From assembly GCA_030657355.1 (NCBI GenBank), contig CP131056.1, forward strand, positions 2,562,501-2,626,500: a stretch of DNA of 64,000 nucleotides. The letters run 5' to 3'. This DNA comes from Radicibacter daui. GTDB lineage: Bacteria > Pseudomonadota > Alphaproteobacteria > Radicibacterales > Radicibacteraceae. The stretch's first letter is position 1. Each line of letters opens with the position of its first letter. This document shows, in pieces, positions 31,907 through 47,965 of this stretch. The position numbers were made by a program, and so were the translations under genes. The notes beneath the pieces are model-generated. The model worked only from the letters and a program-made list of their open reading frames with translations. It made no database searches and had not been told where the DNA came from.

Positions 31907-31944
31907 GATGGACGTTCTGACTTCAAGGAATTGCGGAAGAAGCA

Positions 31945-33054: not shown

Positions 33055-33098
33055 AAACCCCGCGCCTTATTGGCGCAGCGAAAGGTGTGTAACGGGCC

Positions 33099-33794
33099 AT
33101 GAAATGGCTGACAGAAAGCTTCACCAGGGAAGGGCCGGGCATCCCCAAGGATGAACCGAAGAAAACCGGGTTGGCGCTTTTTGCCCAGATTCTGCGGCGC
33201 GAATGGTGGGAGCTCTTCAAGCTCAACCTCGCCATCATCGTCTTCTCGCTGCCCCTTATCACCATCCCCGCCACCCTCGCCGGCGCCATGCGGATATGCC
33301 AGCTGATGGTGGAGGATGAGAACATCTACCTGATGCGGGAATTTACCGGCGCGTTCCGGCGCCTGTTCTGGCGCGCGAGCCTGTGCGGCCTTGCCTTTGG
33401 CGCGGTGCTGGCCATCGCGGGCTACGGTGTTTTTGTCTATGCCCAGCTGGTGCCGCAGGCGCTGCCCTATGCGCTCGCACTGGCGCTGGCGGTCGTCACC
33501 AGCCTTTTCCTGTGGATGGTGGCCGCGCATTTTTTCCTGCTGATGGTGCGGGCGCCGGCGCTTTCCACGGCAACGTTGCTGCGCCTTTCCGCGCTCGCCG
33601 CGCTTTATCGCCCGTTGCCCGCGCTTGGCGCCCTCGCCTTCATCGCCGCGCTGTGGCTTGCGCACATCCTGTTCTACCCGGCCTCCGTCTTCATGCCGGT
33701 GGCCTTCAATTTCTCGCTCGGGACGCTGGCGCTGGTTTTTGCCACCTGGCGCGCGAGCGAGTTCGCCCTGTCCCGGGAGCAGCAGAGCGCCTGA
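33099..33794 (+). CDS. YesL-family (DUF624) membrane protein
   Basis: A 231-residue protein with about five hydrophobic segments and the DUF624 pattern (TLAGAMRICQLMVEDENIYL, then REFTGAFRRLFW). B. subtilis YesL lies in the rhamnogalacturonan utilisation cluster next to a similar importer. Members regularly accompany CUT1 oligosaccharide transporters, but their role is unknown. It lies between the ATPase and binding-protein genes. Confidence 0.85.
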   Translation: MKWLTESFTREGPGIPKDEPKKTGLALFAQILRREWWELFKLNLAIIVFSLPLITIPATLAGAMRICQLMVEDENIYLMREFTGAFRRLFWRASLCGLAFGAVLAIAGYGVFVYAQLVPQALPYALALALAVVTSLFLWMVAAHFFLLMVRAPALSTATLLRLSALAALYRPLPALGALAFIAALWLAHILFYPASVFMPVAFNFSLGTLALVFATWRASEFALSREQQSA

Positions 33795-33865
33795 GACAGG
33801 GAAAAAACTTCAACAAGAACGCACCGGCAAAAAACAAGGCCGATGCCCATAACGGAGGAGACGAC

Positions 33866-35125
33866 ATGAGAAAGATCATCGCGGCAGCCTTGCTGTCGAG
33901 CGCCGGGCTGCTACCCCTTTCCGCCCATGCCGAAGACCAGGTGACCATCAACTGGGCGCTGTGGGACTGGGCCGCCACGGCCTATTACCAGCCGCTTATC
34001 GATGCCTTCCAGGCCAAGCACCCGAATATCAAGGTCGCCTATACCGACCTTGGATCGGCCGATTATTCAACCATGGCGATGACGCAGCTTGCCGGCGGCG
34101 CCAGCGATCTTGACGTCGTCACCATCAAGGACGTGCCGGGTTACGCCAACATGATCAAGGCGAACGCCCTGCTGCCGCTCAATGACGACATGAAGGCGGC
34201 CAAGATCGATGCTGCTGCCTATGGCGGCCTTGTCGAGGCGCTGACGGTCAAGGGCAATACCTACTCCCTGCCGTTCCGCTCCGATATCTGGATCACCTAC
34301 TACAACAAGGACCTGTTTGACGCAGCAGGCGTGCCCTACCCGACCAACGACATGACGCTGGCCCAGTTCGACGAGAAGGCCCGCAAGCTGGCAAGCGGTT
34401 TCGGTGCCAACAAGGTGTATGGCGCCCTGTTCCACACCTGGCGTTCTGCCGTGGAGATGCCCTGCATCATCGACGGCAAGCACACGCTGATCGACGGCAA
34501 GTATGACTTCCTGAAACCCTGTTACGACCGGGTGCTGAAGCTGCAGGAAGAAGGGGTGGTACCCACCTACGCTTCGCTCAACTCCACCAAGACCCACTAT
34601 TCCGGCCCCTTCTTCAACGGCACCATCGCCATGATGCCGATGGGCAGCTGGTTCGTGGGCACCCAGATCAAGAAGGTGAAGTCCGGAGAGTCTCTCTCCA
34701 AGAACTGGGGCATCGCGGCCTTTGCCCATCCCGACGGGGTTGAAGCCGGCTCGACCGCAGCGGTGGTGACGGCGCTTGCCGTGAATGCCAACTCCAAGCA
34801 CCAGCAGGCCGCGCTCGACTTCGTCAACTTCGTCACCGGCCCGGAAGGCGCCGCCGTTGTCGCCAAGACCGGCACGCTGCCCGCACTCAAGACCGACGAG
34901 GTACTGGCTACCATCACTTCCACCCCGGGTTTCCCGCAGGATGAAACCAGCCTCAACGCCCTGCGCTCCAAGAAGGCCTACCTGGAGCTGCCGGTGGATT
35001 TGAAGGCTGCGGACATCGAGGTGGTGCTGAACCGCGCCCATGACGCCATCATGACCAACAACATTTCGGTCGAAGATGGCCTCAAGCAGATGGATGACGG
35101 CGTGCAGGCCATCCTCAAGAAATAA
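33866..35125 (+). CDS. Periplasmic sugar-binding protein (CUT1 family 1)
   Basis: A 419-residue solute-binding protein. Signal peptide: MRKIIAAALLSSAG with cleavage near AHA-ED (residue 23). The mature start has VTINWALWDWA and HPNIKVAYTD, and family segments include FRSDIWITYYNKDLFDAAG and FFNGTIAMMPMGSW. The ATG at 33866 follows GGAGGAG. Placed last in the operon and followed by a strong terminator. Presumably binds unsaturated or intact uronate oligosaccharides for the permeases. Confidence 0.9.
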   Translation: MRKIIAAALLSSAGLLPLSAHAEDQVTINWALWDWAATAYYQPLIDAFQAKHPNIKVAYTDLGSADYSTMAMTQLAGGASDLDVVTIKDVPGYANMIKANALLPLNDDMKAAKIDAAAYGGLVEALTVKGNTYSLPFRSDIWITYYNKDLFDAAGVPYPTNDMTLAQFDEKARKLASGFGANKVYGALFHTWRSAVEMPCIIDGKHTLIDGKYDFLKPCYDRVLKLQEEGVVPTYASLNSTKTHYSGPFFNGTIAMMPMGSWFVGTQIKKVKSGESLSKNWGIAAFAHPDGVEAGSTAAVVTALAVNANSKHQQAALDFVNFVTGPEGAAVVAKTGTLPALKTDEVLATITSTPGFPQDETSLNALRSKKAYLELPVDLKAADIEVVLNRAHDAIMTNNISVEDGLKQMDDGVQAILKK

Positions 35126-35150
35126 CCGGCGCCGCCGGTAACGGCAAAAG

Positions 35151-35188
35151 GGCCCGGAAGGTGACTGCCTTCCGGGCCTGTTCTTTTT
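35151..35188 (+). terminator. Strong terminator of the importer operon
   Basis: GGCCCGGAAGG-TGACTG-CCTTCCGGGCC forms a perfect 11-base stem followed by TGTTCTTTTT. It begins 25 bases after the binding-protein stop. On the other strand the tail CTTTTG gives weaker termination for the convergent LacI gene. Confidence 0.85.
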
Positions 35189-35200
35189 CAGCCGACCACT

Positions 35201-36229
35201 TCAGGATCTCGCCGGCCCCGTCGATGCCCGCACGACAAGCGGCCCGGCAAACTCGGTAAGGGTCACGCTGGCCTCCGGCGCCTTCATCCGCTCCAGAAGA
35301 CGCCTGAGGCCAAAGGCCCCTATTTCCCGCCTTAGCACCCGCACGGTGGTGAGCGCCGGTGAGGACAATCCCGCCATCGGGATATCGTCAAAGCCGATGA
35401 CGGAGACATCCTCGGGCACACGAAGTCCCGCCTCCGCCAGCGCGGCCATAGCGCCGAAAGCGCTGGCATCGTTGCAGCACTGAATGGCGGTGAAATCCGT
35501 CTTGCCCAACCGGGCAAGACGTTCTCGCACCGCTTCATAGGCAAGATCGCTGCGCATATCGGCCAGTTCGACCACAAGGTCCGGATCGAAGGGCAGACCG
35601 GCCATCTGTATCGCCTCCCCGGCGCCGTGAAGGCGGTCGCGCACCGGCAGGCGCCGGCCATGGGTCAGATGCAGAATGCGGCGATGGCCGAACCCCAACA
35701 GGTGACCCGCCGCCGCATAACCGCCCGACCGGTTGCCGGCAGAGATCGCATCGAGCCGCATCAGCGGGTCCGATCCGTTGACGATCACCGCAGGGATGCC
35801 TTGCTGGGCGAGACGTCCGATCAACGTCTCGTCATGGAAAGACAGCAGCACATAACCCTGCCGGGCGCCGTCCCCTTCTGCGTCCGTCAGAGGCACCGGC
35901 TGCCCCTCGCCCATCAGGCTGTAGGAGAGCGTGATACCCAGCTCGTCACAGGCCTGCTGGATGCCGGAAAAAAGCTCCATCTGGAACTCGGGCGCCCCGG
36001 CCGCGGCCACCGCCATGGTGGCAAGCACCGTAACGGTCAGGGAATTCCCGGCAGCGCCCACATAATTCAACCGGTCGGCCGCCGCCTGCACCTTCGCCCG
36101 CACAGGATCGGACAGCCCCGCTGCCCCGCTGAGCGCCCGCGAGGCGGTGCTGATGGAAACACCGGCAAGCTCCGCGATTTCGCGGAGCGTTACCTTGCTT
36201 CTGGTGGTTTCTTCACCCACGCCCGTCAC
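35201..36229 (-). CDS. LacI-family regulator of polysaccharide genes
   Basis: A 342-residue LacI/GalR repressor. The HTH is VTLREIAELAGVSISTASRA, followed by the hinge helix region near VQAAADRLNYVG and a periplasmic-binding-protein-like core (VSVIGFDDIPMAGLSSPALT). The GTG at 36229 is 3 bases after the DUF2264 stop; GTG 36220 has better spacing from GAGGGG and may be the true start. Co-transcribed with DUF2264. A palindrome in front of DUF2264 is the likely operator, giving autoregulation. Confidence 0.85.
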   Translation of the reverse strand: MTGVGEETTRSKVTLREIAELAGVSISTASRALSGAAGLSDPVRAKVQAAADRLNYVGAAGNSLTVTVLATMAVAAAGAPEFQMELFSGIQQACDELGITLSYSLMGEGQPVPLTDAEGDGARQGYVLLSFHDETLIGRLAQQGIPAVIVNGSDPLMRLDAISAGNRSGGYAAAGHLLGFGHRRILHLTHGRRLPVRDRLHGAGEAIQMAGLPFDPDLVVELADMRSDLAYEAVRERLARLGKTDFTAIQCCNDASAFGAMAALAEAGLRVPEDVSVIGFDDIPMAGLSSPALTTVRVLRREIGAFGLRRLLERMKAPEASVTLTEFAGPLVVRASTGPARS

Positions 36230-36232
36230 CCC

Positions 36233-38122
36233 TCAAACATCGCTGCGGGTCAAGCTAACCTGCTCGCGCCGGCAAAGCGTCAGCAGCGTTTCGGGCAGGC
36301 CGACGGGCGGCACTTCGGCGGCCGGATCGGGCACCGCGAAGGCTGCGGTAGCAAGCCAGTTCGTGCCGGCGGCAAGCGTCACCGACAGGCGTGGAAAGAA
36401 GGTGCGCGGGAACCGCAGATTGGTATTTGGCGCTGCCCGCACGATCATCGCCTTGCGGGTGCCGGTCAGATCCACAATGCCGGTGACGGCCGAGAGCGTG
36501 CGCACGAAACCGCGCCCGGCACCGATCTGCATCCAGTCTTCCGGCGTCTGATGGCCATCGCCGGTACGGTCGATGGAAAAACCGCCTTCGGCCACATGCA
36601 GCGGCGTGGTGCTGGTGATGCGGTGCAGGCGCACATGCCAGCCCGGCCCGGCGAAATCGAGCCAGCTGTCGATGGTCAGCATATCGTCCGGCTGCCAGCG
36701 TCCCCAGGCCATGCCGGCATCGATGCCGGCTTCCGTCAGCCGGCTGCGCGACATCCAGGCAAACCCGTCGCGCGAGATGGTAAGGCCGCTGTCAATCGCG
36801 CTCCAGTCCGCGCGGTCCGGCGCGGTGGCATCGCTGGCGACGGAGAAGGCAAAGGCGGAGGAATAAGCAAAGCGGCTGTATTTGGCATCGCAGCCACGAT
36901 GCTCCCAGCCATTCTGCCCGCCTGTCAGCATCACCGCATCCTCGCCGGTGCGCCGGGTGATGAAGCCGCCGGCTTCGGCCAATACCCGCCCACCCGGCAA
37001 GGCTTCCGGTGCTTCTTCCTCCGCATGCCAGAACGGGTGCTCCTGCGGCAATGCCAGCACCAGAAAGCTCTTGAGCGCCCAATAGGGTGAGCCCGGGGCG
37101 TTATAGGCTTCCGACATGATGAGGTTGGGATAGCTGTAGCCGATGGAGAGCACACCATCCCGCTCGGCAATCGGCTGCGTGCCCCACCAGCGCAGGTGCC
37201 GCAGCAACAGGCCCTTGATGCGGCCCCAGGGCAGCACCTCTTCATCCGCAAAGGCGCAGCCGGCCCAGAAGGCGGCCTGCACGAAACGATAGGTCATGGA
37301 GCGGCCGTAGGGAATGGCGGCACCATCATCGGCAAACCAGTGCTGGAAATCGGCCGCAAACAGCCGGGCCCGCTGGCGGTAACGTGCAGCATGGTCGGGG
37401 AACAGGTCGCCCGCGCATTTTGCGACCATCAGCCCGTAAAAATGCATGCCCATGGGGGTGTAATAATCGAGCTGGTACTTGTCGCCGTCGCGGTAATAAC
37501 CGTCCGCGATATAGAAGCTGTCGATGCGCGCCAGCGCCGCCGTCACCGCCTCCAGCGACCAGTCCCGGCCGACATGGCGCAAGGCAAGGTTGGTCAGCAC
37601 CCGGAAGAAGAGCCAGTTGTTATCCGGCATCGGATGGTCATTGATGGTGAGCATCCAGCGCGCGAGGCGTCCCTGCGCCTCGTCCGTCAGCGGCGCCCAG
37701 AGCTGCTCCGGCGCCACCAGCAAGGCCAGCGACAGCCCCGCCATCTCCACCATGCGCTGGTCGAAGGGGCCAACCTCGCCCCAATATTCCGGATGTTCCG
37801 GATCGGTGCCGTTGGCGAGGCCCTCGACAAAGCGGGCCGCATCCTCAAAGGCAAAACCGCCCGCCAGCAGCGGCACGAGGCCCCAGAGCGGGCGCACGAA
37901 ACTCTCCATCTCCGCGGCAGCGCTGCCGTAATGCACCCCGCCCGCCCCCAGCCGGAGTCGGGCATTTCCCTCCGAATACCAGGGCTTCAGCGGCTCATAA
38001 AAAGCCAGCACCGCCCGCGCAAGATCAGCGCGGCTTGCAAGCGGGTTACCGTGGAGCGGATTGCATTCAGCCAGCCGGCGCACCACCGGATCGCGTTCCC
38101 AGGCGGTAAGTTTCGTGGACAT
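36233..38122 (-). CDS. DUF2264 protein, likely glycan-processing enzyme
   Basis: A 629-residue protein of the DUF2264 family, with an N-terminal helical toroid (about 20-400: MPDNNWLFFRVLTNLALRHV, DGYYRDGDKYQLDYYTPMGM) and a C-terminal beta-rich domain (about 410-620). The layout resembles heparinase-like lyases. No signal peptide. ATG 38122 has GGGAGG upstream; earlier in-frame codons have none. DUF2264 genes are frequent in polysaccharide utilisation loci, but the activity is not assigned here. Confidence 0.8.
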   Translation of the reverse strand: MSTKLTAWERDPVVRRLAECNPLHGNPLASRADLARAVLAFYEPLKPWYSEGNARLRLGAGGVHYGSAAAEMESFVRPLWGLVPLLAGGFAFEDAARFVEGLANGTDPEHPEYWGEVGPFDQRMVEMAGLSLALLVAPEQLWAPLTDEAQGRLARWMLTINDHPMPDNNWLFFRVLTNLALRHVGRDWSLEAVTAALARIDSFYIADGYYRDGDKYQLDYYTPMGMHFYGLMVAKCAGDLFPDHAARYRQRARLFAADFQHWFADDGAAIPYGRSMTYRFVQAAFWAGCAFADEEVLPWGRIKGLLLRHLRWWGTQPIAERDGVLSIGYSYPNLIMSEAYNAPGSPYWALKSFLVLALPQEHPFWHAEEEAPEALPGGRVLAEAGGFITRRTGEDAVMLTGGQNGWEHRGCDAKYSRFAYSSAFAFSVASDATAPDRADWSAIDSGLTISRDGFAWMSRSRLTEAGIDAGMAWGRWQPDDMLTIDSWLDFAGPGWHVRLHRITSTTPLHVAEGGFSIDRTGDGHQTPEDWMQIGAGRGFVRTLSAVTGIVDLTGTRKAMIVRAAPNTNLRFPRTFFPRLSVTLAAGTNWLATAAFAVPDPAAEVPPVGLPETLLTLCRREQVSLTRSDV

Positions 38123-38156
38123 TTTTTGCCTCCCAATTTTGCGTGATTTTCTCATC

Positions 38157-38171
38157 GTGCAAAATTTGCAC
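38157..38171 (-). promoter_or_regulatory. Candidate LacI operator palindrome
   Basis: GTGCAAA-A-TTTGCAC is an exact odd palindrome 35-49 bases before the DUF2264 start. Additional TTTGCA-like half-sites lie at 38134-38144 and 38182-38188. LacI-family sites commonly contain TTTGCA-like arms, though they are more often even-length with a central CG. Confidence 0.6.
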
Positions 38172-38252
38172 AACAAGAAAATTTGCAAAAAGAGGCCACA
38201 AGCGAAGAGCCGCCCTATCGATCAGGACGGCCCCAAAACTGTCGAAGGTTTC

Positions 38253-40358
38253 TTAGTCCTCGACCAGCCGCCTGATCCGGTTGGACAGCACGGTCATGTC
38301 GAAGGGCTTGGTGATGACCTGCATGCCGGGATCGAGATGGCCATGGCTCAGCACGGCGTTTTCGGCGTAGCCGGTGGCAAACATCACCTTGATATCGGCC
38401 CGCAGTTCCCGCGCCGCATCGGCGACCTGCCGGCCATTCATGCCCTTGGGCAGGCCGACATCGGTGATCAGCAGATCGATGACCGCATCCGAGCGCAGGA
38501 TCCTGAGCGCTTCCGGCCCGTCGCCGGCTTCCAGCGCCACGAAACCCAGATCCTCCACCGCCTCGACCACCAGCATGCGAACAAGCGGCTCGTCATCGAC
38601 CACGAGCACCGTCTTGCGGCTGGTTACCGGTTCCATGATCTGCGGTTCAGCTTCCGTTTCCATGACCTCAGTAACGTGGTGGCGGGGCAAATAGATGCAG
38701 ACCATCGTACCGCTGCCGACCTCGGAGTAAATCCGCACCTGCCCGCCCGACTGGCGCGCAAAACCATAGATCATCGACAGGCCGAGCCCGGTGCCGAGCC
38801 CGATGGGTTTGGTGGTGAAAAACGGGTCGAAGGCCTTTTCGATCACCTCCGGCGTCATGCCGGAACCGGTATCCGACACGCACATGGAAACATACTGGCC
38901 TGCCGGCAGGTCTCGCGCGGCGGCGCTGCGATCGTCCAGCCAGCGATTGCCGGTCTCGATGGTGATCTTGCCGCCTTCCGGCATTGCGTCGCGGGCATTG
39001 AGGCAGAGATTGAGCAGCGCGTTTTCAAGCTGGTTCTGGTCCACCAGCGTCGACCACAGGCCGCCCTTGGCAACCGTTTCCACCGAAATCTGGGGGCCAA
39101 CCGTGCGCTGGATCAGCTCTTCCATGCTCACCACCAGCCGGTTGACGTCGGTCGGCTTCGGGTCGAGCGTCTGGCGGCGCGAGAAAGCCAGCAGGCGGTG
39201 GGTGAGTGCAGCCGCCCGTTTGGCGGCGCCCTGCGCGCCGATGATGTAGCGCTCCAGCTCGCCCACCCGCCCCTGGCGCATTCGGGTCAGCATCAAATCC
39301 AGCGAGCCGGAAATGCCCGCCAGCAGATTGTTGAAATCATGCGCAAGCCCGCCGGTAAGCTGGCCGACAGCCTCCATCTTCTGCGACTGGCGCAGGGCTT
39401 CTTCCTTGCTCATCAGCTCGGCCGTCTGTTCGGCCACCCGCTGTTCCAGCGTTTCATTGAGTTCGCGCAGCATTTCCGTCACGCGGTCGCGTTCGGCCAG
39501 CACGGCGCGCCGTTCCTCGATATCGATCAGCACGCCGGGAAAACTGGTGGCCGTGCCGTCCGCGCCGGTTTCGACACGGCCGCTGGCCTCCAGCCAGTAA
39601 TATTTGCCATCGGCCCGCCGCGCCCGGTGCTGAAGGGCATAGGCGCCGCCATGGCGGATCGCCTGCTCGACCGCCGATGTCAGCCGCTCGCGATCATCCG
39701 GGTGAACGGCCTCGACGATGCGGTCGAAAGTGAGCCCGGCATTGGCCGTGGCGGGATCGAAGCCAAAAGCGCGCGCAAACCCCTCATCGATACTGAAGCG
39801 GTCATGCGGCAGATCCCAGAACCAGGTGCCGACGATGGCTCCGGCCCCCAGTGCCAGCTGGACACGCTGCATGTTCTCCCAGGCCACCGCCTGGCTCTCC
39901 CGCAGCTCGGCTTCCGCCCGCTTGCGTTCGGTAATGTCGCGAAACAGCACCGAGACCTGGTTCAGGCTGGCGGGCTCTACCCGCGCAGCGGAGACCTCGA
40001 TAAACCGCCCGGCATCGGCAAATTCACGCTCGAAGCGGATGGGGCGGCCGGTATCCAGCACTTCGCGGTAGAGCTTTACCCAGGCATCGCCTTCACTCGG
40101 CGCCACGTCATAGACGGTCTTGCCGACGATATCGGGGATGCCGGTGTGACGCTCATAACCGCTGTTGGCCTCGACATGCACATAGTCGCTGAGCGGTCCG
40201 TGCGGGCCGTCGATGAATTGAATGATGCAAAAGCCGTCGTCAATCGCTTCAAAGAGCGCCCGGTAGCGGGCTTCCTTGTCGGCCGCCCAATCGGCAGTCA
40301 GCGGCTGGCGGCCGGGCGGCGTGGCATCGCCCCCGGTCGAAGAGACCTCGTCCTGCAC
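38253..40358 (-). CDS. PAS-PAS hybrid histidine kinase with receiver domain
   Basis: A 701-residue soluble sensor kinase without membrane spans. Order: PAS/PAC about 30-145, second PAS/PAC about 165-285 (typical RRADGKYYWLEASGRVE), coiled-coil linker 285-330, HisKA with phosphoacceptor His340 (GGLAHDFNNLLAG), HATPase with N box LLNLCLNARDAMPEGG and G boxes VSDTGSGM and LGTGLGLSM, then a receiver domain with phosphoacceptor Asp633 (LLITDVGLP). No response regulator with an output domain is adjacent. Probably a cytoplasmic sensor of redox, light or ligand; signal unknown. It reads leftward and is separated from Nit1C by 227 bases. Confidence 0.88.
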   Translation of the reverse strand: MQDEVSSTGGDATPPGRQPLTADWAADKEARYRALFEAIDDGFCIIQFIDGPHGPLSDYVHVEANSGYERHTGIPDIVGKTVYDVAPSEGDAWVKLYREVLDTGRPIRFEREFADAGRFIEVSAARVEPASLNQVSVLFRDITERKRAEAELRESQAVAWENMQRVQLALGAGAIVGTWFWDLPHDRFSIDEGFARAFGFDPATANAGLTFDRIVEAVHPDDRERLTSAVEQAIRHGGAYALQHRARRADGKYYWLEASGRVETGADGTATSFPGVLIDIEERRAVLAERDRVTEMLRELNETLEQRVAEQTAELMSKEEALRQSQKMEAVGQLTGGLAHDFNNLLAGISGSLDLMLTRMRQGRVGELERYIIGAQGAAKRAAALTHRLLAFSRRQTLDPKPTDVNRLVVSMEELIQRTVGPQISVETVAKGGLWSTLVDQNQLENALLNLCLNARDAMPEGGKITIETGNRWLDDRSAAARDLPAGQYVSMCVSDTGSGMTPEVIEKAFDPFFTTKPIGLGTGLGLSMIYGFARQSGGQVRIYSEVGSGTMVCIYLPRHHVTEVMETEAEPQIMEPVTSRKTVLVVDDEPLVRMLVVEAVEDLGFVALEAGDGPEALRILRSDAVIDLLITDVGLPKGMNGRQVADAARELRADIKVMFATGYAENAVLSHGHLDPGMQVITKPFDMTVLSNRIRRLVED

Positions 40359-40585: not shown

Positions 40586-41854
40586 TCATTCCGCGGCCTT
40601 TGTTGAACCAGCATCGAGGCGCTGCGCGATGATATCGGCCAGATACAGGCTGTCTTCCGCAATACCGAGAAAACGCCCCGAGCCCCAGGTATTCAGCCAG
40701 CCAAGGCCGATAAAATAGATACCCGGCACATCGCAGATCCCGCGTTTGTAAAGCGGTCGGCCCCGGTTATCGAAGACATCGGCCTTGATCCAGGAATAGT
40801 CCGGGCGAAAGCCGATTGACCAGATAACCGACGTGATCCCCAGGGAGGTCGCGTCAATCTGCGTCACCTCTTTTTCCGGTCGCCACAGTTTTACGAAAGG
40901 CGCCTCTTTGGGGGCATCAATGCCCATGCGCTCGATATAGCCGTCGATCTGGCGGCAGATCCCGAGATAGCTCCTGTCCGCATCATCAAGGTTCTGCTCA
41001 AGGTCCGGCAGAAAGGAAATCTGCCCGCCATCCATATCGGACAGCGAGCCATAGAGCCTGACCCCGTCTTCCACTACAAAGCGGCGCAGATCGATCTCTT
41101 TGCCGCCATCCCGGCCAGACATGTAATGGTTGGTCTGGGTGAGCGCCTTGTGCGGGTCGGTATGCTCGGCGATGGTAATCGCATAATGGCCCATGTCGTA
41201 TAGCCAGTCGGTGGCATCACGCCCGCGGTATTTGCGCGGGCTGCGCGGCGCCGGCCCCACCGCCAGATGAACCTCACGCCCCGCCAGAACCAGATCGTCC
41301 ATAATCTGCACTCCGGACTGACCGGTCCCGACCACCAGCGTTGCGCCTTCGGGCAACTGCGAAGGACGCCGGTAGTCGCGCGAATGCATCTGCTCGATAT
41401 CCGGATCAAGCTTTTCGGCATAAGAGGGAACAATCGGGGTGTCGTAACCGCCGGTCGCGATCACCACATGGTCGCAGCGGTAGGCGCCGATGGACGTTTC
41501 CACTTCAAACCCGCCCTGTTCACGCGGGGTTACACTGGTGACATCGACATTCTCCAGCAAGGGCGCCGGGAAGCTGGCGGCAAAACCATCCAGATAGTCT
41601 GTGATCTCATCCTTGAGCATGTATCCGTCAGGGTCGTTCCCCTGATAGGGATAGCCCGGCAGCCGGCACTGCCAGTTGGGGGTGACAAGGCAGAAACTGT
41701 CCCAGCGATTGACACGCCAGGAATGGAATTTGCCATGTCGCTCAAACACAAGATGCTCAATGTTCTTCTGAACGAGATTCCGGCTGACCGACAGGCCAGC
41801 CTGTCCGCCGCCGACAATGATGACCGGCACGTATGACACCCGGGCCTCAGCCAT
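40586..41854 (-). CDS. Nit1C flavoprotein, MSMEG_0569 family
   Basis: A 422-residue FAD/NAD(P)H-dependent oxidoreductase of the MSMEG_0569 family, last gene of the Nit1C operon. The FAD site is GGGQAG at 15-20, the NAD(P) site is GTGQSG at 176-181, and a flavin-monooxygenase-like stretch FHSWRVNRWDSFCLVTPNW spans about 43-61. The C-terminal FAD-binding YFIGLGWLNTWGSGRF is present. It resembles class B monooxygenases and may oxidise an N-containing intermediate. Its start lies 11 bases after the preceding stop. Substrate and product unknown. Confidence 0.85.
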   Translation of the reverse strand: MAEARVSYVPVIIVGGGQAGLSVSRNLVQKNIEHLVFERHGKFHSWRVNRWDSFCLVTPNWQCRLPGYPYQGNDPDGYMLKDEITDYLDGFAASFPAPLLENVDVTSVTPREQGGFEVETSIGAYRCDHVVIATGGYDTPIVPSYAEKLDPDIEQMHSRDYRRPSQLPEGATLVVGTGQSGVQIMDDLVLAGREVHLAVGPAPRSPRKYRGRDATDWLYDMGHYAITIAEHTDPHKALTQTNHYMSGRDGGKEIDLRRFVVEDGVRLYGSLSDMDGGQISFLPDLEQNLDDADRSYLGICRQIDGYIERMGIDAPKEAPFVKLWRPEKEVTQIDATSLGITSVIWSIGFRPDYSWIKADVFDNRGRPLYKRGICDVPGIYFIGLGWLNTWGSGRFLGIAEDSLYLADIIAQRLDAGSTKAAE

Positions 41855-41865
41855 GGGGCTCTCCC

Positions 41866-42153
41866 TTAAATTTTCATCGTGAGACAGGTTACCCGGGGAT
41901 CGTCGTCCCCCTCGTACCGGGAGGCCCGCTGCTCCAGCAGTGCCAGCTGCCCGCGTGCACGGCTGCAGGGATACCCGTATTTCTGCTCGACACGGTCGGA
42001 GGCAGCCTGCAGGGCACTGCGCGCCCGGGCGCGAAACTCCGTGAGCCCGTAGGTCTGCCCCGGATGCAGATGATCGCAGATCACGCTGGAGGGGGAATAA
42101 CAGCGCTCTTCATCGCCATCGGGCCAACGGATGGTGAACCAGACTTCAGGCAT
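41866..42153 (-). CDS. Nit1C small protein, MSMEG_0570 family
   Basis: A 95-residue protein of the MSMEG_0570 'nitrogen starvation response' family. The beta-strand-rich N-terminus PEVWFTIRWPDGDEERCYSP and VICDHLHPGQTYGLTEF are diagnostic, with a helical middle (RARARSALQAASDRVEQKYG). Cys residues at about 18, 26 and 62 may bind metal. Overlaps the AIR-synthase-like gene by 8 bases. Found only in Nit1C clusters; biochemical role unknown. Confidence 0.85.
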   Translation of the reverse strand: MPEVWFTIRWPDGDEERCYSPSSVICDHLHPGQTYGLTEFRARARSALQAASDRVEQKYGYPCSRARGQLALLEQRASRYEGDDDPRVTCLTMKI

Positions 42154-43126
42154 GCATCACCTCCCGGCTTCCCAGGCCAAGATAGGGAGCGGCCCCATGG
42201 TCCCAGAAAAGCGCCGACTGTCCCTGGCTGCGCAACGTCACCTGACTGCCATGAGCGACCGAGCCGATAACAGTGGCGGCAATATCCCGCCCGGCAAAAA
42301 CCTGGCACACGCGGCTCGCAGCAGCCGGCGCCGCGGCGAGCAAAAACCCGAAGCTGGGAAAACTGTGCAGCCAGCGTTGCAGGGGCACTCCGGCAGGCGG
42401 GCAGATATCATCGAGCACCAGCTCGATGCCGACGCCGGAACATTCGGCCAGCATCAGCGCCGTTCCGGCGATGCCGCCCTGGCTGATATCCTTGCCGGCG
42501 CGAACGAGCCCGGCTTCCGCCAATGCCGGCAGGCTGGCCAGATCACCGCGCAGCCTCTGCGCCGGCGCATGGCCGGCGGCAAAAAAATTGTCGAAGTTCC
42601 GGTAGTCCCCGCGATGATCAGCTACAGCGACAAGGCTGTCACCGGGCTGCGCATCGAAGCTTGTGATCAGCGCCTGCGCCCGCCCGAAAATGGAAACAGC
42701 AAGATTAAGCTCCGGCGCTGCAAAATTCGTGTGGCCGCCAACGATGGCAACGCCATAGGCCTCAGCCGCATCACGCAGGCCGGCAAGCAGAGGCCTTGCC
42801 GCCTCCGGATCCGGTGACCAGACCTGATCGACCACCCCCACCGCCCTGCCCCCCATGGCGGCGATATCGGAGAGGTTGACCATGATCCCGCACCACCCGG
42901 CAAACCACGGGTCATCCCTGACAAAGGCCGGAATAAACCCTTCCCCTGCCAGCAGGTCGAAGCCGCCTTCCGGCCGCTCCAGAATGGCCGCATCATCGCC
43001 CGGCCGCCCCATCCGCGCAGGGCCAATTTCCAGCCCGCCAACGGCATCGCCTATGGCTAGCTTGGAGCGGATGGCCGGATGGGCGCGCAAGAAAGACGCC
43101 AGCTGTTCCAGACCGGCCGTGCTCAT
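42146..43126 (-). CDS. Nit1C AIR-synthase-like protein, sll0787 family
   Basis: A 326-residue PurM/ThiL-fold protein. The ATP-binding opening RPGDDAAIL (about 40-48), the glycine-rich MVNLSDIAAMGGRAVGV (about 81) and GGHTNFAAPELNLAVSIFG support a kinase- or cyclo-ligase-like activity. In this family (sll0787) the enzyme is thought to activate a carbonyl or phosphorylate an intermediate; no reaction is proven to my knowledge. Overlaps its neighbours at both ends, by 4 bases and 8 bases, as expected in a tightly coupled operon. Confidence 0.85.
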   Translation of the reverse strand: MSTAGLEQLASFLRAHPAIRSKLAIGDAVGGLEIGPARMGRPGDDAAILERPEGGFDLLAGEGFIPAFVRDDPWFAGWCGIMVNLSDIAAMGGRAVGVVDQVWSPDPEAARPLLAGLRDAAEAYGVAIVGGHTNFAAPELNLAVSIFGRAQALITSFDAQPGDSLVAVADHRGDYRNFDNFFAAGHAPAQRLRGDLASLPALAEAGLVRAGKDISQGGIAGTALMLAECSGVGIELVLDDICPPAGVPLQRWLHSFPSFGFLLAAAPAAASRVCQVFAGRDIAATVIGSVAHGSQVTLRSQGQSALFWDHGAAPYLGLGSREVMHA

Positions 43127-43668
43127 GCCGCGCCCCGCAGGACCTTGTGATACCAGCCGGCGGCCGGGTCCGGCGCCGGTTCATAATAGTCCAGCCGGGC
43201 GGCCATGCGCATGTGGGGCACCCCATGCACGTCCACCTCGCCCAGCACATCCCACCGCATGCGGCGAAAGAGGATGACGTTCTGCGGCTGAACATTGGCC
43301 AGAAAGCGGTGGCAGCCCCGGGCATTGGCGGTACCGACAGCAAGGCGGATCAATTCCGGCCCCAGCCGCCCGACATTGCGGTAGGCCAGATCGACGGCAA
43401 GACGCGAGCCCCACCACACGCCTTTTTCGGCTTCATGAATGCGCACAGTGCCAACGACACCGTCCGCTTCATGCGCACAGGTGCTGAGCGCCACCAGATG
43501 CGTGGCGATCATGTCGATATCGTCGCGGTCGTGGTTCTTGAAGATGCCCTGTTCTTCAACAAATACCCGCCGGCGCAGATCAGAGGCGCCGGCAGCTTCC
43601 CACGGCATGGTTGCCGCGCGGATGAAATAGCCCGGAGAGCGGAAAGGCTGCACGGTACCGCTCATCAT
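43123..43668 (-). CDS. Nit1C GNAT acetyltransferase, MSMEG_0567 family
   Basis: A 181-residue N-acetyltransferase-fold protein of the MSMEG_0567 family. The acyl-CoA-binding region RNVGRLGPELIRLAVGTANA carries the expected glycine turn, preceded by SRLAVDLAYR. RRRVFVEEQGIF is a family-typical start. In some organisms this protein is fused to the sll0787 protein; here the two are separate genes overlapping by 4 bases, as is the radical SAM gene on the other side. Confidence 0.85.
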   Translation of the reverse strand: MMSGTVQPFRSPGYFIRAATMPWEAAGASDLRRRVFVEEQGIFKNHDRDDIDMIATHLVALSTCAHEADGVVGTVRIHEAEKGVWWGSRLAVDLAYRNVGRLGPELIRLAVGTANARGCHRFLANVQPQNVILFRRMRWDVLGEVDVHGVPHMRMAARLDYYEPAPDPAAGWYHKVLRGAA

Positions 43669-44757
43669 GCCACCTTGAATTTTTCGTAGGTGGAGAGTGC
43701 AGAGCAGGCGCCGCAGCGCCCGCAGCCAGCCTTGATTTCCTCCGAACGCATGCCCGCAGCGACGATCATCTCGCCCAGCGGGCGCAGGATGGAGGCCATG
43801 AAAGCGGCGCTGGGGGCAGGATGGCTCTCCAGCGGAGTGCCGGAAATCGGCACAAACGGCACAACGAATGGATAGACCCCGATAGCGCAGAGTTTCTGAG
43901 ATATCTCGAGGATGGCCTCGGCGCTGTCGCCGAGCCCGGCGAGGATATAGGTAGAAACCTGCCCACGCCCGAAGACCTTCACCGCCGCCTCGAACGAGCT
44001 GAAATACTTGCTGAGCGGCACCGATGCCTTGCCGGGCATGATCCGGGCACGGACTTCGGGCGTCACCGCCTCGATATGCATTCCGAGCGTATCGATACCG
44101 GCATCGGCCATACGCTGGTGCCAGGCATCATCGTCCGGCGGCTCGCATTGCCCCTGTATCGGCAGATTGACGGCGGCCTTGATGGCGCGGGCACTTTCAG
44201 CCAGCACGGCGGCACCGCGATCGGAGCCGGGGGGCGTGCCGGTCGTGAGCACCATATGCTCGATGCCATCCAGCTCGACCGCCGCTTTGGCAACTTCTGC
44301 AAGTTGCTCCGGTGTTTTGTGCGCAATTGTCCGCCCGGCCGACAGGCTCTGCCCGATCGCACAGAACTGGCAGGTTTTCTTGCGGCTTTCATAGCGGATA
44401 CAGGTCTGCAGCACCGTCGTTGCCAGCACATTGCGGGAATGCAGGGTGGCAATGTGGCTATAGGGAATACCGTCTGCCGTCTTCAGATCGTAAAAGCGCG
44501 GCCGGCCGGGGAAACGCACCTCAGCCACCTCGGCGCCGTCGCGCAAGACGCGGGAGACACCGGCTGCATCGGGCTCGCCAACCACGAAGGGGCTTTCAAA
44601 GGCCGGGGCGGTATGTACCGGGATCATCACGGTCTTGTCGCCGACGATCACGGCCTTGTGGTCGGAAGGCCCGGCCCCGCCGCGGCGGCTCTCATGCCCC
44701 GCGCGGGGATTGATGAGCCTGACCCCGCGGGTCTGCATTTCGTTAATCAGATCGGAA

Positions 44758-44765
<8 letters not shown>
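43665..44765 (-). CDS. Nit1C radical SAM protein, MSMEG_0568 family
   Basis: A 366-residue radical SAM enzyme. The cluster cysteines are Cys122, Cys132 and Cys135 ([15 protein letters not shown]), a C-x9-C-x2-C pattern instead of the usual C-x3-C-x2-C, as in Elp3. A second cysteine group, GCGRCGAC, lies near the C-terminus and could hold another cluster. SAM-binding TTGTPPG follows at about 198. GTG 44765 has AAAAGGAG upstream and overlaps the nitrilase gene by 8 bases; the longer frame to 44903 lies inside the nitrilase. Reaction unknown. Confidence 0.88.
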
Positions 44766-45765
<1,000 letters not shown>

Positions 45766-45815
45766 CAGGTGAAGTTCCTTCCTATCCGATCAATCCGACA
45801 CAATACCGGCCGCAT

Positions 45816-45846
45816 TGACGGGGGCCGCTTCCGGCGACCCCCGTCA
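45816..45846 (-). other. Intercistronic hairpin within Nit1C operon
   Basis: TGACGGGGG and CCCCCGTCA pair perfectly over 9 bases with a 13-base loop (itself containing CCG...CGG), starting 9 bases downstream of the first gene's stop. No T tract follows. It may stabilise the 5' message or reduce read-through, giving more of the first protein than of the enzymes. Confidence 0.55.
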
Positions 45847-45854
45847 GCCGAGGG

Positions 45855-46337
45855 TCAAACGGTCCAGGTATCGAGGATGACTGCATTGGCCTTCTTGTGG
45901 ATGAGGATGCAATCCAGCACATCCTGCGGTGCAATCGGCGTGATGCCGGGCAGCAGGGACGGCTCACCATGACCGTACAGGGCCTGCAGGGCGAACCGGC
46001 AGGCATAGACCTTGCCCCCCTCGCCCATGAACTTCTTGAGGTTGACCGCGAAGTTCTGATGCCCCGGAAACGCCTCGTCTCCCAGCGTGGGAAATCCGCG
46101 CTGGATACCCAGCGTGACACCGGGGCCATAAAGCAGGATCGACGTTTCATAGCCTTTCCGGTTCAGCCGGATGGCATTGAGAATATTCACGAGACCAATG
46201 GATCCCTCAAAGGCCACCGTATGGAAGGTAACGAGCGCCTTCTCCCCGGCCTCGGCCTTCACGTCCTCAAAAACCTTTTCCTCATAGTTCACAAAAAAGT
46301 CGCCATCCTTATGGGCGGGCTGCGTCACTGCGGGCAT
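45855..46337 (-). CDS. Nit1C first protein, MSMEG_0572/Sll0783 family
   Basis: A 160-residue protein of the Sll0783/MSMEG_0572 nitrogen-starvation-response family, first in the operon. ATG 46337 has AAGGAGAG upstream; the frame opens earlier but without a ribosome-binding site. The fold has a DsrE-like appearance ([20 protein letters not shown], then [16 protein letters not shown]), with one central cysteine. Cyanobacterial homologues are induced by nitrogen starvation. Possible carrier or binding role; not established. Confidence 0.85.
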
Positions 46338-46390
46338 GTCACTCTCCTTGCTGTCCACAGTGAATCGGATATGTCGCACCATTTAGCCCG

Positions 46391-46434
46391 TCAAATTACA
46401 GTTCAATATACATACAATAATTCCATCAAATTAC
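46391..46434. promoter_or_regulatory. TCAAATTAC direct repeats in Nit1C promoter region
   Basis: TCAAATTAC occurs at 46391-46399 and again at 46426-46434, 35 bases start to start, in the AT-rich gap between Nit1C and the MocR gene. MocR/GabR-type regulators often bind direct repeats, so this is a candidate site. Confidence 0.45.
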
Positions 46435-46519
46435 CGCCTCATGCCTACGATTTCGGCGAAAAGCGTGCAAAACAGGCATCTAAAGATACAAAAACAGCCA
46501 CTCATCCTGAGATTTATCA

Positions 46520-46564
46520 TGGAATCGGCATCAAAATTGATCCATACATTGCGCTACGATTCCA
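46520..46564. promoter_or_regulatory. Spaced inverted repeat before MocR gene
   Basis: TGGAATCG (46520-46527) and CGATTCCA (46557-46564) are exact inverted copies 29 bases apart, ending 30 bases before the MocR start. ATCAA-AA-TTGAT lies between. Possible autoregulatory site. Confidence 0.35.
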
Positions 46565-46594
46565 CCTCACGTGACACAGGGCATCGGGACTTGC

Positions 46595-47965
46595 ATGGCG
46601 AACTGGACCCCGGAAATACGAAATGACGGCACCCCGCATTACCTCTCGATTGCCAATGCCATTGCCGATGACATCCGCAGCGGCCTGCTGAAGCCCGGAC
46701 AGCGCCTGCCTCCCCAGCGCCAGCTGGCTGCGCATCTCGGCATCGATTTCACCACCGTCTCCCGCGCCTATTCCGAGGCGCAGGCCCGCCGGCTCGTGAA
46801 CAGCCACGTCGGACGGGGCACCTTTGTATCGGAGACAGCCGCCCCGGCTGCGCAGCCCGACCCGGCACGCACTTCGGGCGAAGATTTGTCGATGAACATG
46901 CCGCCGGAGCCGACTGATCCGGCGCTGCTGGAGCGGATGCGCGAAGGACTAGGTTATGTCTCGGCCAACCTGGTACCATTGCTGCGCTACCAATCCGCCC
47001 TTGGCGGCGAAAAGGACCGGACCGTCGCCTCAAGCTGGCTTTCCCTGCGCGGACTGGTGCCGAGGCTGGAGCGGATCGCGGTCACCCCCGGGGCGCATGC
47101 CACGATGGCGGCCATCCTGTCCCTGGTGGCCGAGCCGGGCGATGTGGTCCTTTGCGAAAGGATCACCTATTCCGGTATCCGCGCCATCACCCAGCGGCTG
47201 GGTATCCGGCTCGTCGGCATTGAGATGGACGGGGACGGCATCCTGCCGGAGGCGCTGGAAGCGGCGATAAAGGAGCACGCCCCCCGCATGCTCTATCTCA
47301 ATCCCACGCTGCAGAACCCCACAACCGTCACGATGCCGACGAAGCGCCGGCTGGAGATTTCCCAGCTCATCGCGGAATATCGCCTGCCGCTGATCGAGGA
47401 TGATGCCTACGGCTTCATCCCGGAACGCGCACCGGCACCGATTGCGGCCTCTGCGCCGGATCTCACCTGGTATATTGGCGGCCTCGCCAAATGTATCGGC
47501 GCCGGACTGCGCCTTGCCTATACGGTGACGCCATCGGCCAAGCATACGCTGGCGCTGGAACAATCGATAAAGGCCCTCTCCGTCATGCCGTCGCCGCTTT
47601 CCATGGCGCTGGCAACACGCTGGATCGAGGACGGCACCGCGGACCTTATCCGCCGTTTTGTGCGCAAGGAAACCGCGCTGCGCCAGCAGATCGCCCGCGA
47701 GGCGCTGGAGGGGCTGGATTTCCTTGGCGCGGAGAATGCCTTCAACATCTGGCTGAGGCTGCCCCCCGGGGCAAGCCGGGCCGATGTGATTGCCAACATG
47801 GCAGGACGCCATATCGGCATCATCCCGTCAGATGCCTTCACGGTGGGCGGGCCGCCGGACGAGCATGTCCGCCTGTGTCTTGGCGGCTCTGCGGAACGGG
47901 CGCAGCTGGAGACGAGCCTCAATTATCTGGCCCATATGCTGATGCCGGATGCCTATCTGAAGTAG
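46595..47965 (+). CDS. MocR/PdxR-type GntR-aminotransferase regulator
   Basis: A 456-residue fusion: GntR winged HTH (about 15-80: QRLPPQRQLAAHLGIDFTTV, RRLVNSHVGRGTFV) and a fold-type I aminotransferase domain (about 115-450). PLP residues are retained: Lys299 in GGLAKCIGAGLRLAY, Asp270 in EDDAYGF, NPTLQNPT at 236-243. These regulators sense PLP aldimines of amino acids or amines. Divergent from Nit1C across 257 bases, so it probably controls that operon. ATG 46595 preferred over GTG 46571. Converges with the SDR at 48017. Confidence 0.88.
   Translation: MANWTPEIRNDGTPHYLSIANAIADDIRSGLLKPGQRLPPQRQLAAHLGIDFTTVSRAYSEAQARRLVNSHVGRGTFVSETAAPAAQPDPARTSGEDLSMNMPPEPTDPALLERMREGLGYVSANLVPLLRYQSALGGEKDRTVASSWLSLRGLVPRLERIAVTPGAHATMAAILSLVAEPGDVVLCERITYSGIRAITQRLGIRLVGIEMDGDGILPEALEAAIKEHAPRMLYLNPTLQNPTTVTMPTKRRLEISQLIAEYRLPLIEDDAYGFIPERAPAPIAASAPDLTWYIGGLAKCIGAGLRLAYTVTPSAKHTLALEQSIKALSVMPSPLSMALATRWIEDGTADLIRRFVRKETALRQQIAREALEGLDFLGAENAFNIWLRLPPGASRADVIANMAGRHIGIIPSDAFTVGGPPDEHVRLCLGGSAERAQLETSLNYLAHMLMPDAYLK

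What the first reader, a model, noticed from the sequence alone, without database searches (positions are those of the whole stretch)
40586..47965. Complete Nit1C gene cluster with a MocR regulator
Seven genes in canonical order (Sll0783-like, nitrilase, radical SAM, GNAT, AIR-synthase-like, MSMEG_0570-like, MSMEG_0569 flavoprotein), mostly overlapping by 4-8 bases, next to a divergent PLP-dependent MocR regulator. Established: the cluster is conserved across bacteria and was linked to cyanide assimilation in Pseudomonas. To my knowledge the reaction sequence, the reason for a nitrilase with radical SAM and AIR-synthase partners, and the native substrate are unresolved. Inference: the cluster builds or breaks a nitrile-containing metabolite, and the PLP regulator senses an amino acid or amine.
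Basis: partly seen in the sequence, partly recalled or inferred. Interest (0 to 1): 0.9.

Follow-up and report, generated by a model that had tools for sequence, protein, structure and literature searches.

The report
Nit1C operon with dedicated MocR regulator
This is a complete copy of a known but unexplained seven-gene bacterial operon tied to nitrogen starvation and cyanide use; it sits beside its own vitamin-B6-type regulator, and comparison across bacteria gives testable clues to what the operon senses and makes.

Summary
All seven Nit1C genes lie at 40586-46337 on the minus strand in the standard order, each over its NCBIfam cut-off, next to a divergent MocR (about 46595-47965). The cluster is known; its product and native substrate are not.

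New here:
(1) MocR is a regular partner of Nit1C in the Proteobacteria sampled: 96 of 103 loci, 19 of 20 from random draws. 49 of 50 linked MocR tested form one clade.
(2) The mocR-nitB gap carries tandem ATTG boxes 11-12 bp apart in 63 of 95 loci (2-12 in shuffles), this window included; a sigma-54 promoter in 55 of 95, not here.
(3) In 45 of 106 loci an LnmK-type gene follows, in nine also methylmalonyl-CoA mutase; two others carry a propionate-CoA-ligase-like gene. Together they suggest propionyl-CoA as acyl donor in those lineages. The window genome gave no LnmK or mutase hit.
(4) NitB has a predicted DsrE/YchN fold; NitG gave no PDB match.

Best reading: a biosynthetic pathway with a nitrilase step, switched by a MocR that reads a cyanide- or nitrile-derived amino compound. 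The chemistry remains inference.

The parts
45855..46337 (-). nitB, Sll0783/MSMEG_0572 family; predicted DsrE/YchN fold with a conserved Cys
   Evidence: TIGR04044 283.6 bits over cut-off; start ATG 46337 with ribosome site; model pLDDT 73.6, Z 14.7 to 3mc3
44758..45765 (-). nitC, Nit6803-family nitrilase
   Evidence: TIGR04048 553.7 bits; closest solved chain 3wuy, 485 bits; ACWEH active-cysteine motif in 102 of 102 loci
43665..44765 (-). nitD, radical SAM enzyme with spacing CX9CX2C and a C-terminal CX2CX2C
   Evidence: TIGR04043 598.4 bits; both motifs in 103 of 103 loci; start GTG 44765 chosen by ribosome site
43123..43668 (-). nitE, GNAT N-acyltransferase
   Evidence: TIGR04045 206.5 bits; Pfam FeeM and GNAT domains
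42146..43126 (-). nitF, AIR-synthase/ThiL/SelD-like enzyme
   Evidence: TIGR04049 401.3 bits; best PDB relatives are thiamine-monophosphate kinases
41866..42153 (-). nitG, MSMEG_0570 family, 95 aa
   Evidence: TIGR04042 123.4 bits; model pLDDT 97.3, no significant PDB match
40586..41854 (-). nitH, MSMEG_0569-family flavoprotein oxidoreductase/monooxygenase-like
   Evidence: TIGR04046 594.8 bits; Pfam Pyr_redox_3 and Lys_Orn_oxgnase
46595..47965 (+). MocR-type (GntR + PLP aminotransferase fold) regulator, divergent to nitB
   Evidence: Pfam GntR and Aminotran_1_2; best NCBIfam EhuR 414.6 bits, below cut-off 480; PLP-lysine position K307 (ORF numbering from 46571) invariant in 25 of 25
46391..46418 (-). 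Predicted MocR operator at the nitB promoter: ATTG-type boxes (two exact ATTG 11 bp apart, then ATTTG)
   Evidence: found once in the window; tandem boxes in 63 of 95 loci against 2-12 in 20 shuffles and 88 of 6592 control windows; binding not tested
46530..46550 (-). Predicted second MocR box beside the mocR start
   Evidence: found once in the window; ATTG motifs are also frequent near the mocR side in other loci

Best explanation
A complete, intact Nit1C operon under its own MocR regulator. SHOWN: all seven genes, order, families, single nitD; the MocR belongs to a Nit1C-linked clade; the shared promoter region carries a conserved tandem-box pattern. STRONGLY INFERRED: MocR binds those boxes and controls nitB-H and itself. 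INFERRED: the operon is a biosynthetic pathway with a nitrilase step, not just a nitrile-degrading kit. NitD (radical SAM) and NitF (ATP-dependent activation of a carbonyl or amide, as recalled for PurM/ThiL-type enzymes) assemble the core. NitB may relay sulfur. NitE N-acylates with a short-chain acyl-CoA (propionyl-CoA in lineages with LnmK/mutase/PrpE-like genes). NitH oxidises. NitC turns a nitrile intermediate, or the adduct of cyanide with a pathway aldehyde/ketone, into acid plus ammonia. MocR's PLP-lysine reads a cyanide- or nitrile-derived amino compound, so the operon rises when cyanide or its adducts are present; other lineages add nitrogen control through a sigma-54 promoter.
For: Families over cut-off. 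All seven genes in 99 of 103 loci. mocR beside Nit1C in 96 of 103 loci and in 19 of 20 random-draw loci. Tree of 50 linked MocR (chosen from the linked loci) and 28 unlinked: 49 linked in one clade, SH-aLRT 97. MocR-NitD distance correlation 0.77, largest of 999 permutations 0.10. Tandem boxes 63 of 95 against 2-12 in shuffles; 38 of 59 after thinning relatives against 0-8, and 88 of 6592 control windows. Accessory genes: LnmK-type in 45 of 106 loci, methylmalonyl-CoA mutase in 9 (all with LnmK), propionate-CoA-ligase-like in 2 (neither with LnmK). Random draws: the four TIGR04099 hits of 283 bits or more all lie within 7 kb of nitD; the other three (131-162 bits) are in genomes without a nitD over cut-off. 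MocR-cyanide precedents: MpaR (PMC10790758) and the cio-cluster MocR (PMC8567248). In CECT5344 nit1C proteins rise with cyanide (PMC10138600).
Against: The genetics in print that I saw (Pseudomonas) ties NitC to growth on cyanide, which the simpler assimilation view explains. The window operon has no LnmK, mutase or ligase gene beside it, and its genome gave no hit for LnmK or methylmalonyl-CoA mutase, so the propionyl-CoA idea does not apply directly here. Among 21 nitD genomes from the random draws only 4 carry LnmK. LnmK activity is inferred from family membership; no PDB relative was found. The ligase-like genes score below the propionate-CoA-ligase cut-off (502-525 against 955) and nearly as well on acetate-CoA ligase (422-449). 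No ligand, DNA-binding or product data for this MocR were found. An invariant Arg (R434), at the place recalled to bind a ligand carboxylate in GabR, points to an amino acid rather than bare cyanide. Nit1C without MocR exists (L069, L071, L074, L142).
Confidence: 0.45

Rival explanations
1. Nit1C is a cyanide/nitrile assimilation cluster: cyanide forms a cyanohydrin with a keto acid without enzyme, NitC hydrolyses it to acid and ammonia, and the other six proteins protect, supply or repair. Nothing is biosynthesised.
For: Papers on P. pseudoalcaligenes CECT5344 describe NitC as essential for cyanide assimilation through a 2-hydroxynitrile (PMC11049912; PMC8567248; PMC10138600). The window NitC is close to Nit6803. 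MocR-type regulators exist in other cyanide-responsive systems.
Against: It gives no role for a radical SAM enzyme, a PurM-type enzyme, a GNAT, a glycosyltransferase (57 of 103 loci) or LnmK/mutase/ligase genes, although all seven core genes are kept in 99 of 103 loci.
Confidence: 0.3
2. The accessory genes are catabolic: the nitrilase yields a short acid that the PrpE-like ligase activates and methylmalonyl-CoA mutase feeds to succinyl-CoA, so Nit1C degrades a natural aliphatic nitrile.
For: Propionate-CoA-ligase-like gene after nitH in L046 and L147; mutase in 9 loci; Nit1C nitrilases act on hydroxyglutaronitrile (PMC1199592).
Against: All nine mutase loci also carry LnmK-type genes, whose family is recalled to decarboxylate methylmalonyl-CoA, the opposite of what a catabolic route needs. 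Whether propionyl-CoA carboxylase or epimerase genes are nearby was not tested. Radical SAM, NitF, GNAT and glycosyltransferase stay unexplained.
Confidence: 0.15
3. MocR is a neighbour that regulates something else, and the ATTG boxes belong to another protein.
For: Nit1C exists without MocR in some Rhizobium and gammaproteobacteria. A different MocR sits beside Nit1C in Acetobacter.
Against: 96 of 103 loci across alpha, beta and gamma lineages; one clade; distance correlation 0.77 with NitD and 0.91 with the glycosyltransferase. The box resembles the printed EnuR operator ATTGTnnnnnnACAAT (PMC8739950), and EhuR is the nearest NCBIfam family.
Confidence: 0.05

Closest known systems
nit1C of Pseudomonas pseudoalcaligenes (oleovorans) CECT 5344 and P. 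fluorescens NCIMB 11764
   Same: Same seven structural genes in the same order nitBCDEFGH (PMC11049912, passages).
   Different: There the regulator is NitA, a Fis-family sigma-54-dependent regulator; here it is a MocR with tandem ATTG boxes and no sigma-54 promoter motif.
sll0783-sll0787 of Synechocystis and the MSMEG_0565-0572 region of Mycobacterium smegmatis
   Same: The family names of the products derive from these loci; Sll0783 is called nitrogen-starvation-induced in a reference title (seen).
   Different: Neither lineage could be reached with the tools, so gene order and regulators were not compared here.
EhuR/EnuR (EutR), MocR regulators of ectoine use
   Same: Closest NCBIfam family (414.6 bits in the window; 346-442 in six other Nit1C-adjacent MocR); printed operator ATTGTnnnnnnACAAT shares the ATTGT box.
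   Different: Below the EhuR cut-off of 480 bits in all seven tested; sits by Nit1C; boxes are mainly direct repeats 11-12 bp apart.
MpaR of Pseudomonas aeruginosa and MocR of the cio-nit4 cluster of CECT5344
   Same: MocR-type regulators in cyanide-responsive systems (PMC10790758; PMC8567248).
   Different: MpaR acts as an activator, cio MocR as a putative repressor.

Membership tests
Nit1C gene cluster | Seven genes: hypothetical (Sll0783), subfamily-1 nitrilase, radical SAM, GNAT, AIRS-like, about 100-aa hypothetical, flavoprotein; six in fixed order | tested here: met
   All seven over NCBIfam cut-offs in order nitB-H; definition from PMC1199592 (passages)
Nit1C gene cluster | Function in cyanide or nitrile assimilation | not testable with these tools
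   Seen only for Pseudomonas experiments in print
MocR/GabR family of transcription factors | N-terminal GntR helix-turn-helix plus aminotransferase fold-type I domain | tested here: met
   PF00392 at 24-86 and PF00155 at 167-443
MocR/GabR family of transcription factors | Lysine for PLP and the surrounding cofactor residues | tested here: met
   K307, D277, Y280, N249, R434 invariant in 25 of 25 Nit1C-linked MocR; the roles of these positions are recalled, PLP binding not measured
EhuR/EnuR ectoine regulator | Score over the NCBIfam NF052286 cut-off of 480 bits | tested here: not met
   414.6 bits in the window; 346-442 in six others
NitA-type sigma-54 regulated nit1C (Pseudomonas) | Divergent sigma-54 activator beside nitB and a sigma-54 promoter | tested here: not met
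   Divergent gene is MocR; no TGGYAY-N5-TTGC site in the window gap; gammaproteobacterial L142, L148 and L044 do have such an activator
LnmK-type accessory module | TIGR04099/TIGR04098 gene after nitH | tested here: not met
   Absent beside the window operon; no hit in its genome; present in 45 of 106 loci
DsrE/YchN fold (NitB) | Fold match well above background | tested here: met
   Z 14.7, rmsd 2.5, 118 aligned to 3mc3; the next nine chains, among them YchN, TusBCD and DsrEFH, at Z 11.1-13.4, then a drop to 6.4; model pLDDT 73.6; sulfur transfer not tested

The most novel reading that the evidence does not exclude
Nit1C is a cyanide-triggered biosynthetic pathway. Its dedicated MocR is a direct cyanide sensor (cyanide adding to the PLP-lysine aldimine), and the operon makes an N-acylated, in many lineages propionylated and glycosylated, carbonyl compound that traps cyanide as a nitrile; NitC then drains that nitrile to acid and ammonia. 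Radical SAM, AIRS-like, GNAT, glycosyltransferase and nitrilase genes would thus be one cyanide-scavenging cycle.
Probability: 0.12. Interest if true: 0.85.

Novelty: new variant of a known kind. Interest (0 to 1): 0.55.

Why it matters
Nit1C is spread across phyla and widespread in ocean Synechococcus, yet in the papers I could search no product or native substrate is given, two decades after its description. A Nit1C-linked MocR clade with a defined candidate operator turns 'what does the pathway respond to' into a simple ligand-titration experiment. The LnmK, mutase and ligase genes point to a specific acyl-CoA to feed in labelled form. If MocR reads cyanide itself, it would add to the few bacterial cyanide sensors; the MpaR paper calls such sensing poorly understood.

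Tried and rejected
Phage or viral copies: one scan of viral contigs with NitD found no relative.

Reaching actinobacteria or cyanobacteria: L088 is titled Solirubrobacterales, but a phylum draw around its genome returned matches with coordinates and scores already seen in the window's phylum (compare). Its genome is therefore most likely proteobacterial or misnamed, and the two lineages were not reached.

Polyamine-type ABC transporter next to mocR (window 48.8-52.9 kb) as part of the system: rejected, because three of its four genes have no relative near the other loci and the ATP-binding one falls in a cluster of ABC proteins scattered on both sides of 25 loci.

MocR next-best hits (L179-L191) as further members: rejected, no Nit1C or accessory gene nearby by tblastn above 60 bits.

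Alignment A1 contained two rows read on the wrong strand (L007, L037); it was discarded and replaced by A2.

NitG fold: nothing significant (best Foldseek E 0.6, best VIA Z 4.7); this is an absence of a match, not proof of a new fold.

Glycosyltransferase of the MSMEG_0565 family in the window genome: 11 weak hits, none over cut-off.

Suvorova and Rodionov 2016 (PMC5320631; passages and term counts only): nitrilase, cyanide, AIR synthase, radical SAM and COG0388 do not occur in the main text; its supplements could not be read, so they may list this regulon.
Full report
WHAT IS THERE. The seven proteins read from 40586-46337 on the minus strand each exceed the curated NCBIfam cut-off of one of the seven Nit1C families, in the standard order nitB-C-D-E-F-G-H. 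The genome (5.06 Mb, 2 contigs) holds one nitD. Overlaps are 8 bases (C/D, using the GTG start at 44765), 4 (D/E), 4 (E/F) and 8 (F/G); nitB-nitC has an 89-base gap and nitG-nitH an 11-base gap. A MocR-type gene (GntR plus aminotransferase fold) runs the other way from about 46595 to 47965. The best named NitD match is Nitratireductor sp. ZSWI3 (87% in the best segment), and the MocR's nearest relative is from the same strain (74%), so the host is most likely a related alphaproteobacterium.

WHAT IS ALREADY KNOWN. Nit1C was defined in 2005 (PMC1199592, passages read), which states that no experiment ties the genes to a known reaction. In Pseudomonas it was later linked to cyanide assimilation through NitC acting on a 2-hydroxynitrile, with a Fis-family sigma-54 regulator NitA (PMC11049912, passages). 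In CECT5344 the text says cyanide up-regulates NitC, and the table rows for nit1C proteins show large ratios (NitC 769.53; the column heading was not in the passage; PMC10138600, passages). Nit1C proteins there also rise with 3-cyanoalanine (PMC8567248, passages). It is inferred for most Synechococcus cells of warm, iron-replete waters (PMC10119275, passages).

MOCR AS A REGULAR PARTNER. I mapped the eight genes by tblastn on 104 stretches: the window, 80 named loci (the best 80 of 547 confirmed by the search, so biased to close relatives), 20 loci from random draws of the class and phylum, and three plasmid stretches. One stretch without an intact nitD (L044) was dropped, leaving 103. mocR was found in 96 of 103, and in 19 of the 20 random-draw loci. 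The usual arrangement is divergent beside nitB; exceptions include L046 (same strand as nitB) and L094 (beside a moved nitE). Of the seven without mocR, L048, L105 and L122 are cut by contig ends; L069, L071 and L074 (Rhizobium) and L142 (a gammaproteobacterium) lack it. L142 and the Acinetobacter plasmids L148 and L044 have a PAS plus sigma-54 activator instead, and L071 has a LysR-type gene upstream. L148 also has a PLP-dependent aminotransferase-family gene about 7 kb upstream, cut by the edge of the stretch.

A tree of 50 linked MocR (chosen from the linked loci) and 28 unlinked ones puts 49 linked ones in one clade (SH-aLRT 97; its two main halves 63 and 75); the Acetobacter one (L046) branches elsewhere, an apparent second recruitment. 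It is a quick tree without bootstrap. In a MocR profile search of 278 class genomes the seven best places (651 bits or more) are in seven of the eight nitD genomes; the next place is 569 bits. The eighth (G282) does not appear in that listing, and the profile was built from linked MocR, which favours such a gap. Distances of MocR and NitD correlate at 0.77 (94 loci; largest of 999 permutations 0.10), and MocR with the glycosyltransferase at 0.91; core enzymes among themselves give 0.49-0.75. Species kinship was not removed, so this shows travelling together, not interaction.

THE PROMOTER REGION. In 95 mocR-nitB gaps, ATTG boxes repeat 11-12 bp apart in 63 (sigma-54 sites set aside), against 2-12 in 20 dinucleotide shuffles and 88 of 6592 equal-length stretches outside the cluster, both strands counted (these controls are mostly coding, so the shuffles are the fairer test). 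After thinning to 59 loci under 85% NitD identity, 38 have boxes against 0-8 in shuffles. In the window the site is 46391-46418 with a second box at 46530-46550 near mocR. The other 32 gaps gave no tandem boxes by this strict pattern. A sigma-54 motif (TGGYAY-N5-TTGC) lies 51-131 bp (median 77) before the projected nitB start in 55 of 95 loci, against 0-1 in shuffles and 1 on the opposite strand, and 12 of 6592 control stretches. The window lacks it. It is commoner with the glycosyltransferase form (43 of 51) than without (12 of 44). A sigma-54 promoter needs an AAA+ activator; NtrC, hence nitrogen limitation, is my inference. The printed EnuR operator, ATTGTnnnnnnACAAT (PMC8739950, passages), shares the ATTGT box.

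WHAT MOCR MAY SENSE. Its nearest NCBIfam family is EhuR, below that family's cut-off in all seven tested. EnuR binds acetylated diaminobutyrates through PLP. All 25 aligned Nit1C MocR keep K307, D277, Y280 and R434; that R434 corresponds to a carboxylate-binding arginine is recalled. Two pseudomonad regulators of the same type act in cyanide-responsive systems. MpaR controls ccoN4 in response to endogenous cyanide, and changing its PLP lysine abolished expression (mutant protein levels also fell); that paper notes that PLP reacts spontaneously with cyanide (PMC10790758, abstract and passages). A mocR mutant of CECT5344 expresses the cio-nit4 cluster constitutively, by unpublished proteomics cited there (PMC8567248, passages). 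Cyanide, an amino-nitrile or 3-cyanoalanine are therefore reasonable ligands. None was tested.

A PROPIONYL-COA HINT. After nitH, within 160 bases in 41 of the 45 cases, 45 of 106 loci carry a gene; its L047 copy scores over cut-off for TIGR04099 and for TIGR04098, the LnmK acyltransferase/decarboxylase family. Nine of these, all Burkholderiaceae by title, add methylmalonyl-CoA mutase; the L107 copy is over the NCBIfam cut-off and matches solved mutases. Acetobacter L046 and Pantoea L147 carry a propionate-CoA-ligase-like gene instead (502-525 bits, cut-off 955; acetate-CoA ligase models score 422-449) and no LnmK. Read together, succinyl-CoA to methylmalonyl-CoA to propionyl-CoA, or propionate to propionyl-CoA, would feed the GNAT NitE; that LnmK acts on methylmalonyl-CoA is recalled. 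In random draws 4 of 21 nitD genomes have a high-scoring TIGR04099 hit (283-308 bits), all within 7 kb of nitD; three more hits (131-162 bits) lie in genomes without a nitD over cut-off. A 2016 paper lists a conserved hypothetical protein and a putative methylmalonyl-CoA mutase after a Nit1C operon, without comment in the passages I saw (PMC4751646), so the mutase neighbour is in print. Against generality: the window genome has no hit for LnmK or for any methylmalonyl-CoA mutase (8 of 14 control genomes positive), so its acyl donor may differ.

THE PROTEINS. NitD keeps CX9CX2C and a C-terminal CX2CX2C in 103 of 103 loci; this is not the usual CX3CX2C spacing (recalled), and the protein also exceeds the cut-off of NCBIfam 'variant_rSAM'. 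NitB is very conserved (86% mean column identity in 33 sequences); its model (pLDDT 73.6) matches DsrE/YchN-type proteins at Z 11.1-14.7, the next unrelated row being 6.4. Its Cys113 is invariant in those 33, and the motif around it was found in 98 of 101 loci, which fits a sulfur relay; that is untested. The YchN-like fold was already suggested in 2005. NitG gives a confident model (pLDDT 97.3) with no significant PDB match. NitC keeps its ACWEH motif in 102 of 102 loci.

VERDICT. The cluster itself is known. What is new, within the papers I could search, is the MocR-box system as the regular form in the alpha- and betaproteobacteria sampled and the joint reading of the LnmK, mutase and ligase genes. 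I found no paper in those listings that couples MocR with Nit1C itself; the MocR passages I read in the CECT5344 papers concern the cio cluster, and one listed paper with both topics (PMC5333837) was not opened. The supplements of PMC5320631 were unreadable and subscription papers are missing, so prior mention cannot be excluded.

Noticed in passing
plasmids collection, hit list: 514 plasmid records encode a NitD relative, 373 of them from Klebsiella and 30 from Escherichia, with Nit6803 nitrilase annotated alongside in most of the 60 rows shown; Nit1C is widely carried on enterobacterial plasmids.
   Followed up: no
L044 (Acinetobacter sp. NCu2D-2 plasmid): A decayed Nit1C: only a 129-residue part of nitD matched, nitB and nitC were not found by tblastn, an IS30-family transposase lies nearby, while nitE, nitF, nitG and nitH remain.
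   Followed up: partly
L108 (Hansschlegelia plantiphila): Split Nit1C: nitB, C, D, H and LnmK together, nitF on another contig of the same genome.
   Followed up: partly
L094 and L129: Rearranged Nit1C orders (E-H-B-C-D-F-GT-G and B-C-D-H-E-F-GT-G) beside a divergent mocR.
   Followed up: no
L088: Record titled Solirubrobacterales, but the phylum draw around its genome matches the window's own phylum: probably a misnamed or mixed assembly.
   Followed up: partly
window 30734-38188: Genes that look like plant-polysaccharide use: GH88-family enzyme, sugar ABC transporter parts, DUF2264 protein and a LacI regulator, hinting at a plant-associated host.
   Followed up: no
window 38253-40358: Hybrid PAS histidine kinase with receiver domain about 230 bases after nitH on the same strand; no relative among the neighbours of the other Nit1C loci.
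   Followed up: partly
NitF, window 42146-43126: After its own family, its best NCBIfam match is methanogenesis marker 2 (183.8 bits), and NitD matches HmdB and LipS2 weakly: a possible shared module with archaeal cofactor pathways.
   Followed up: no
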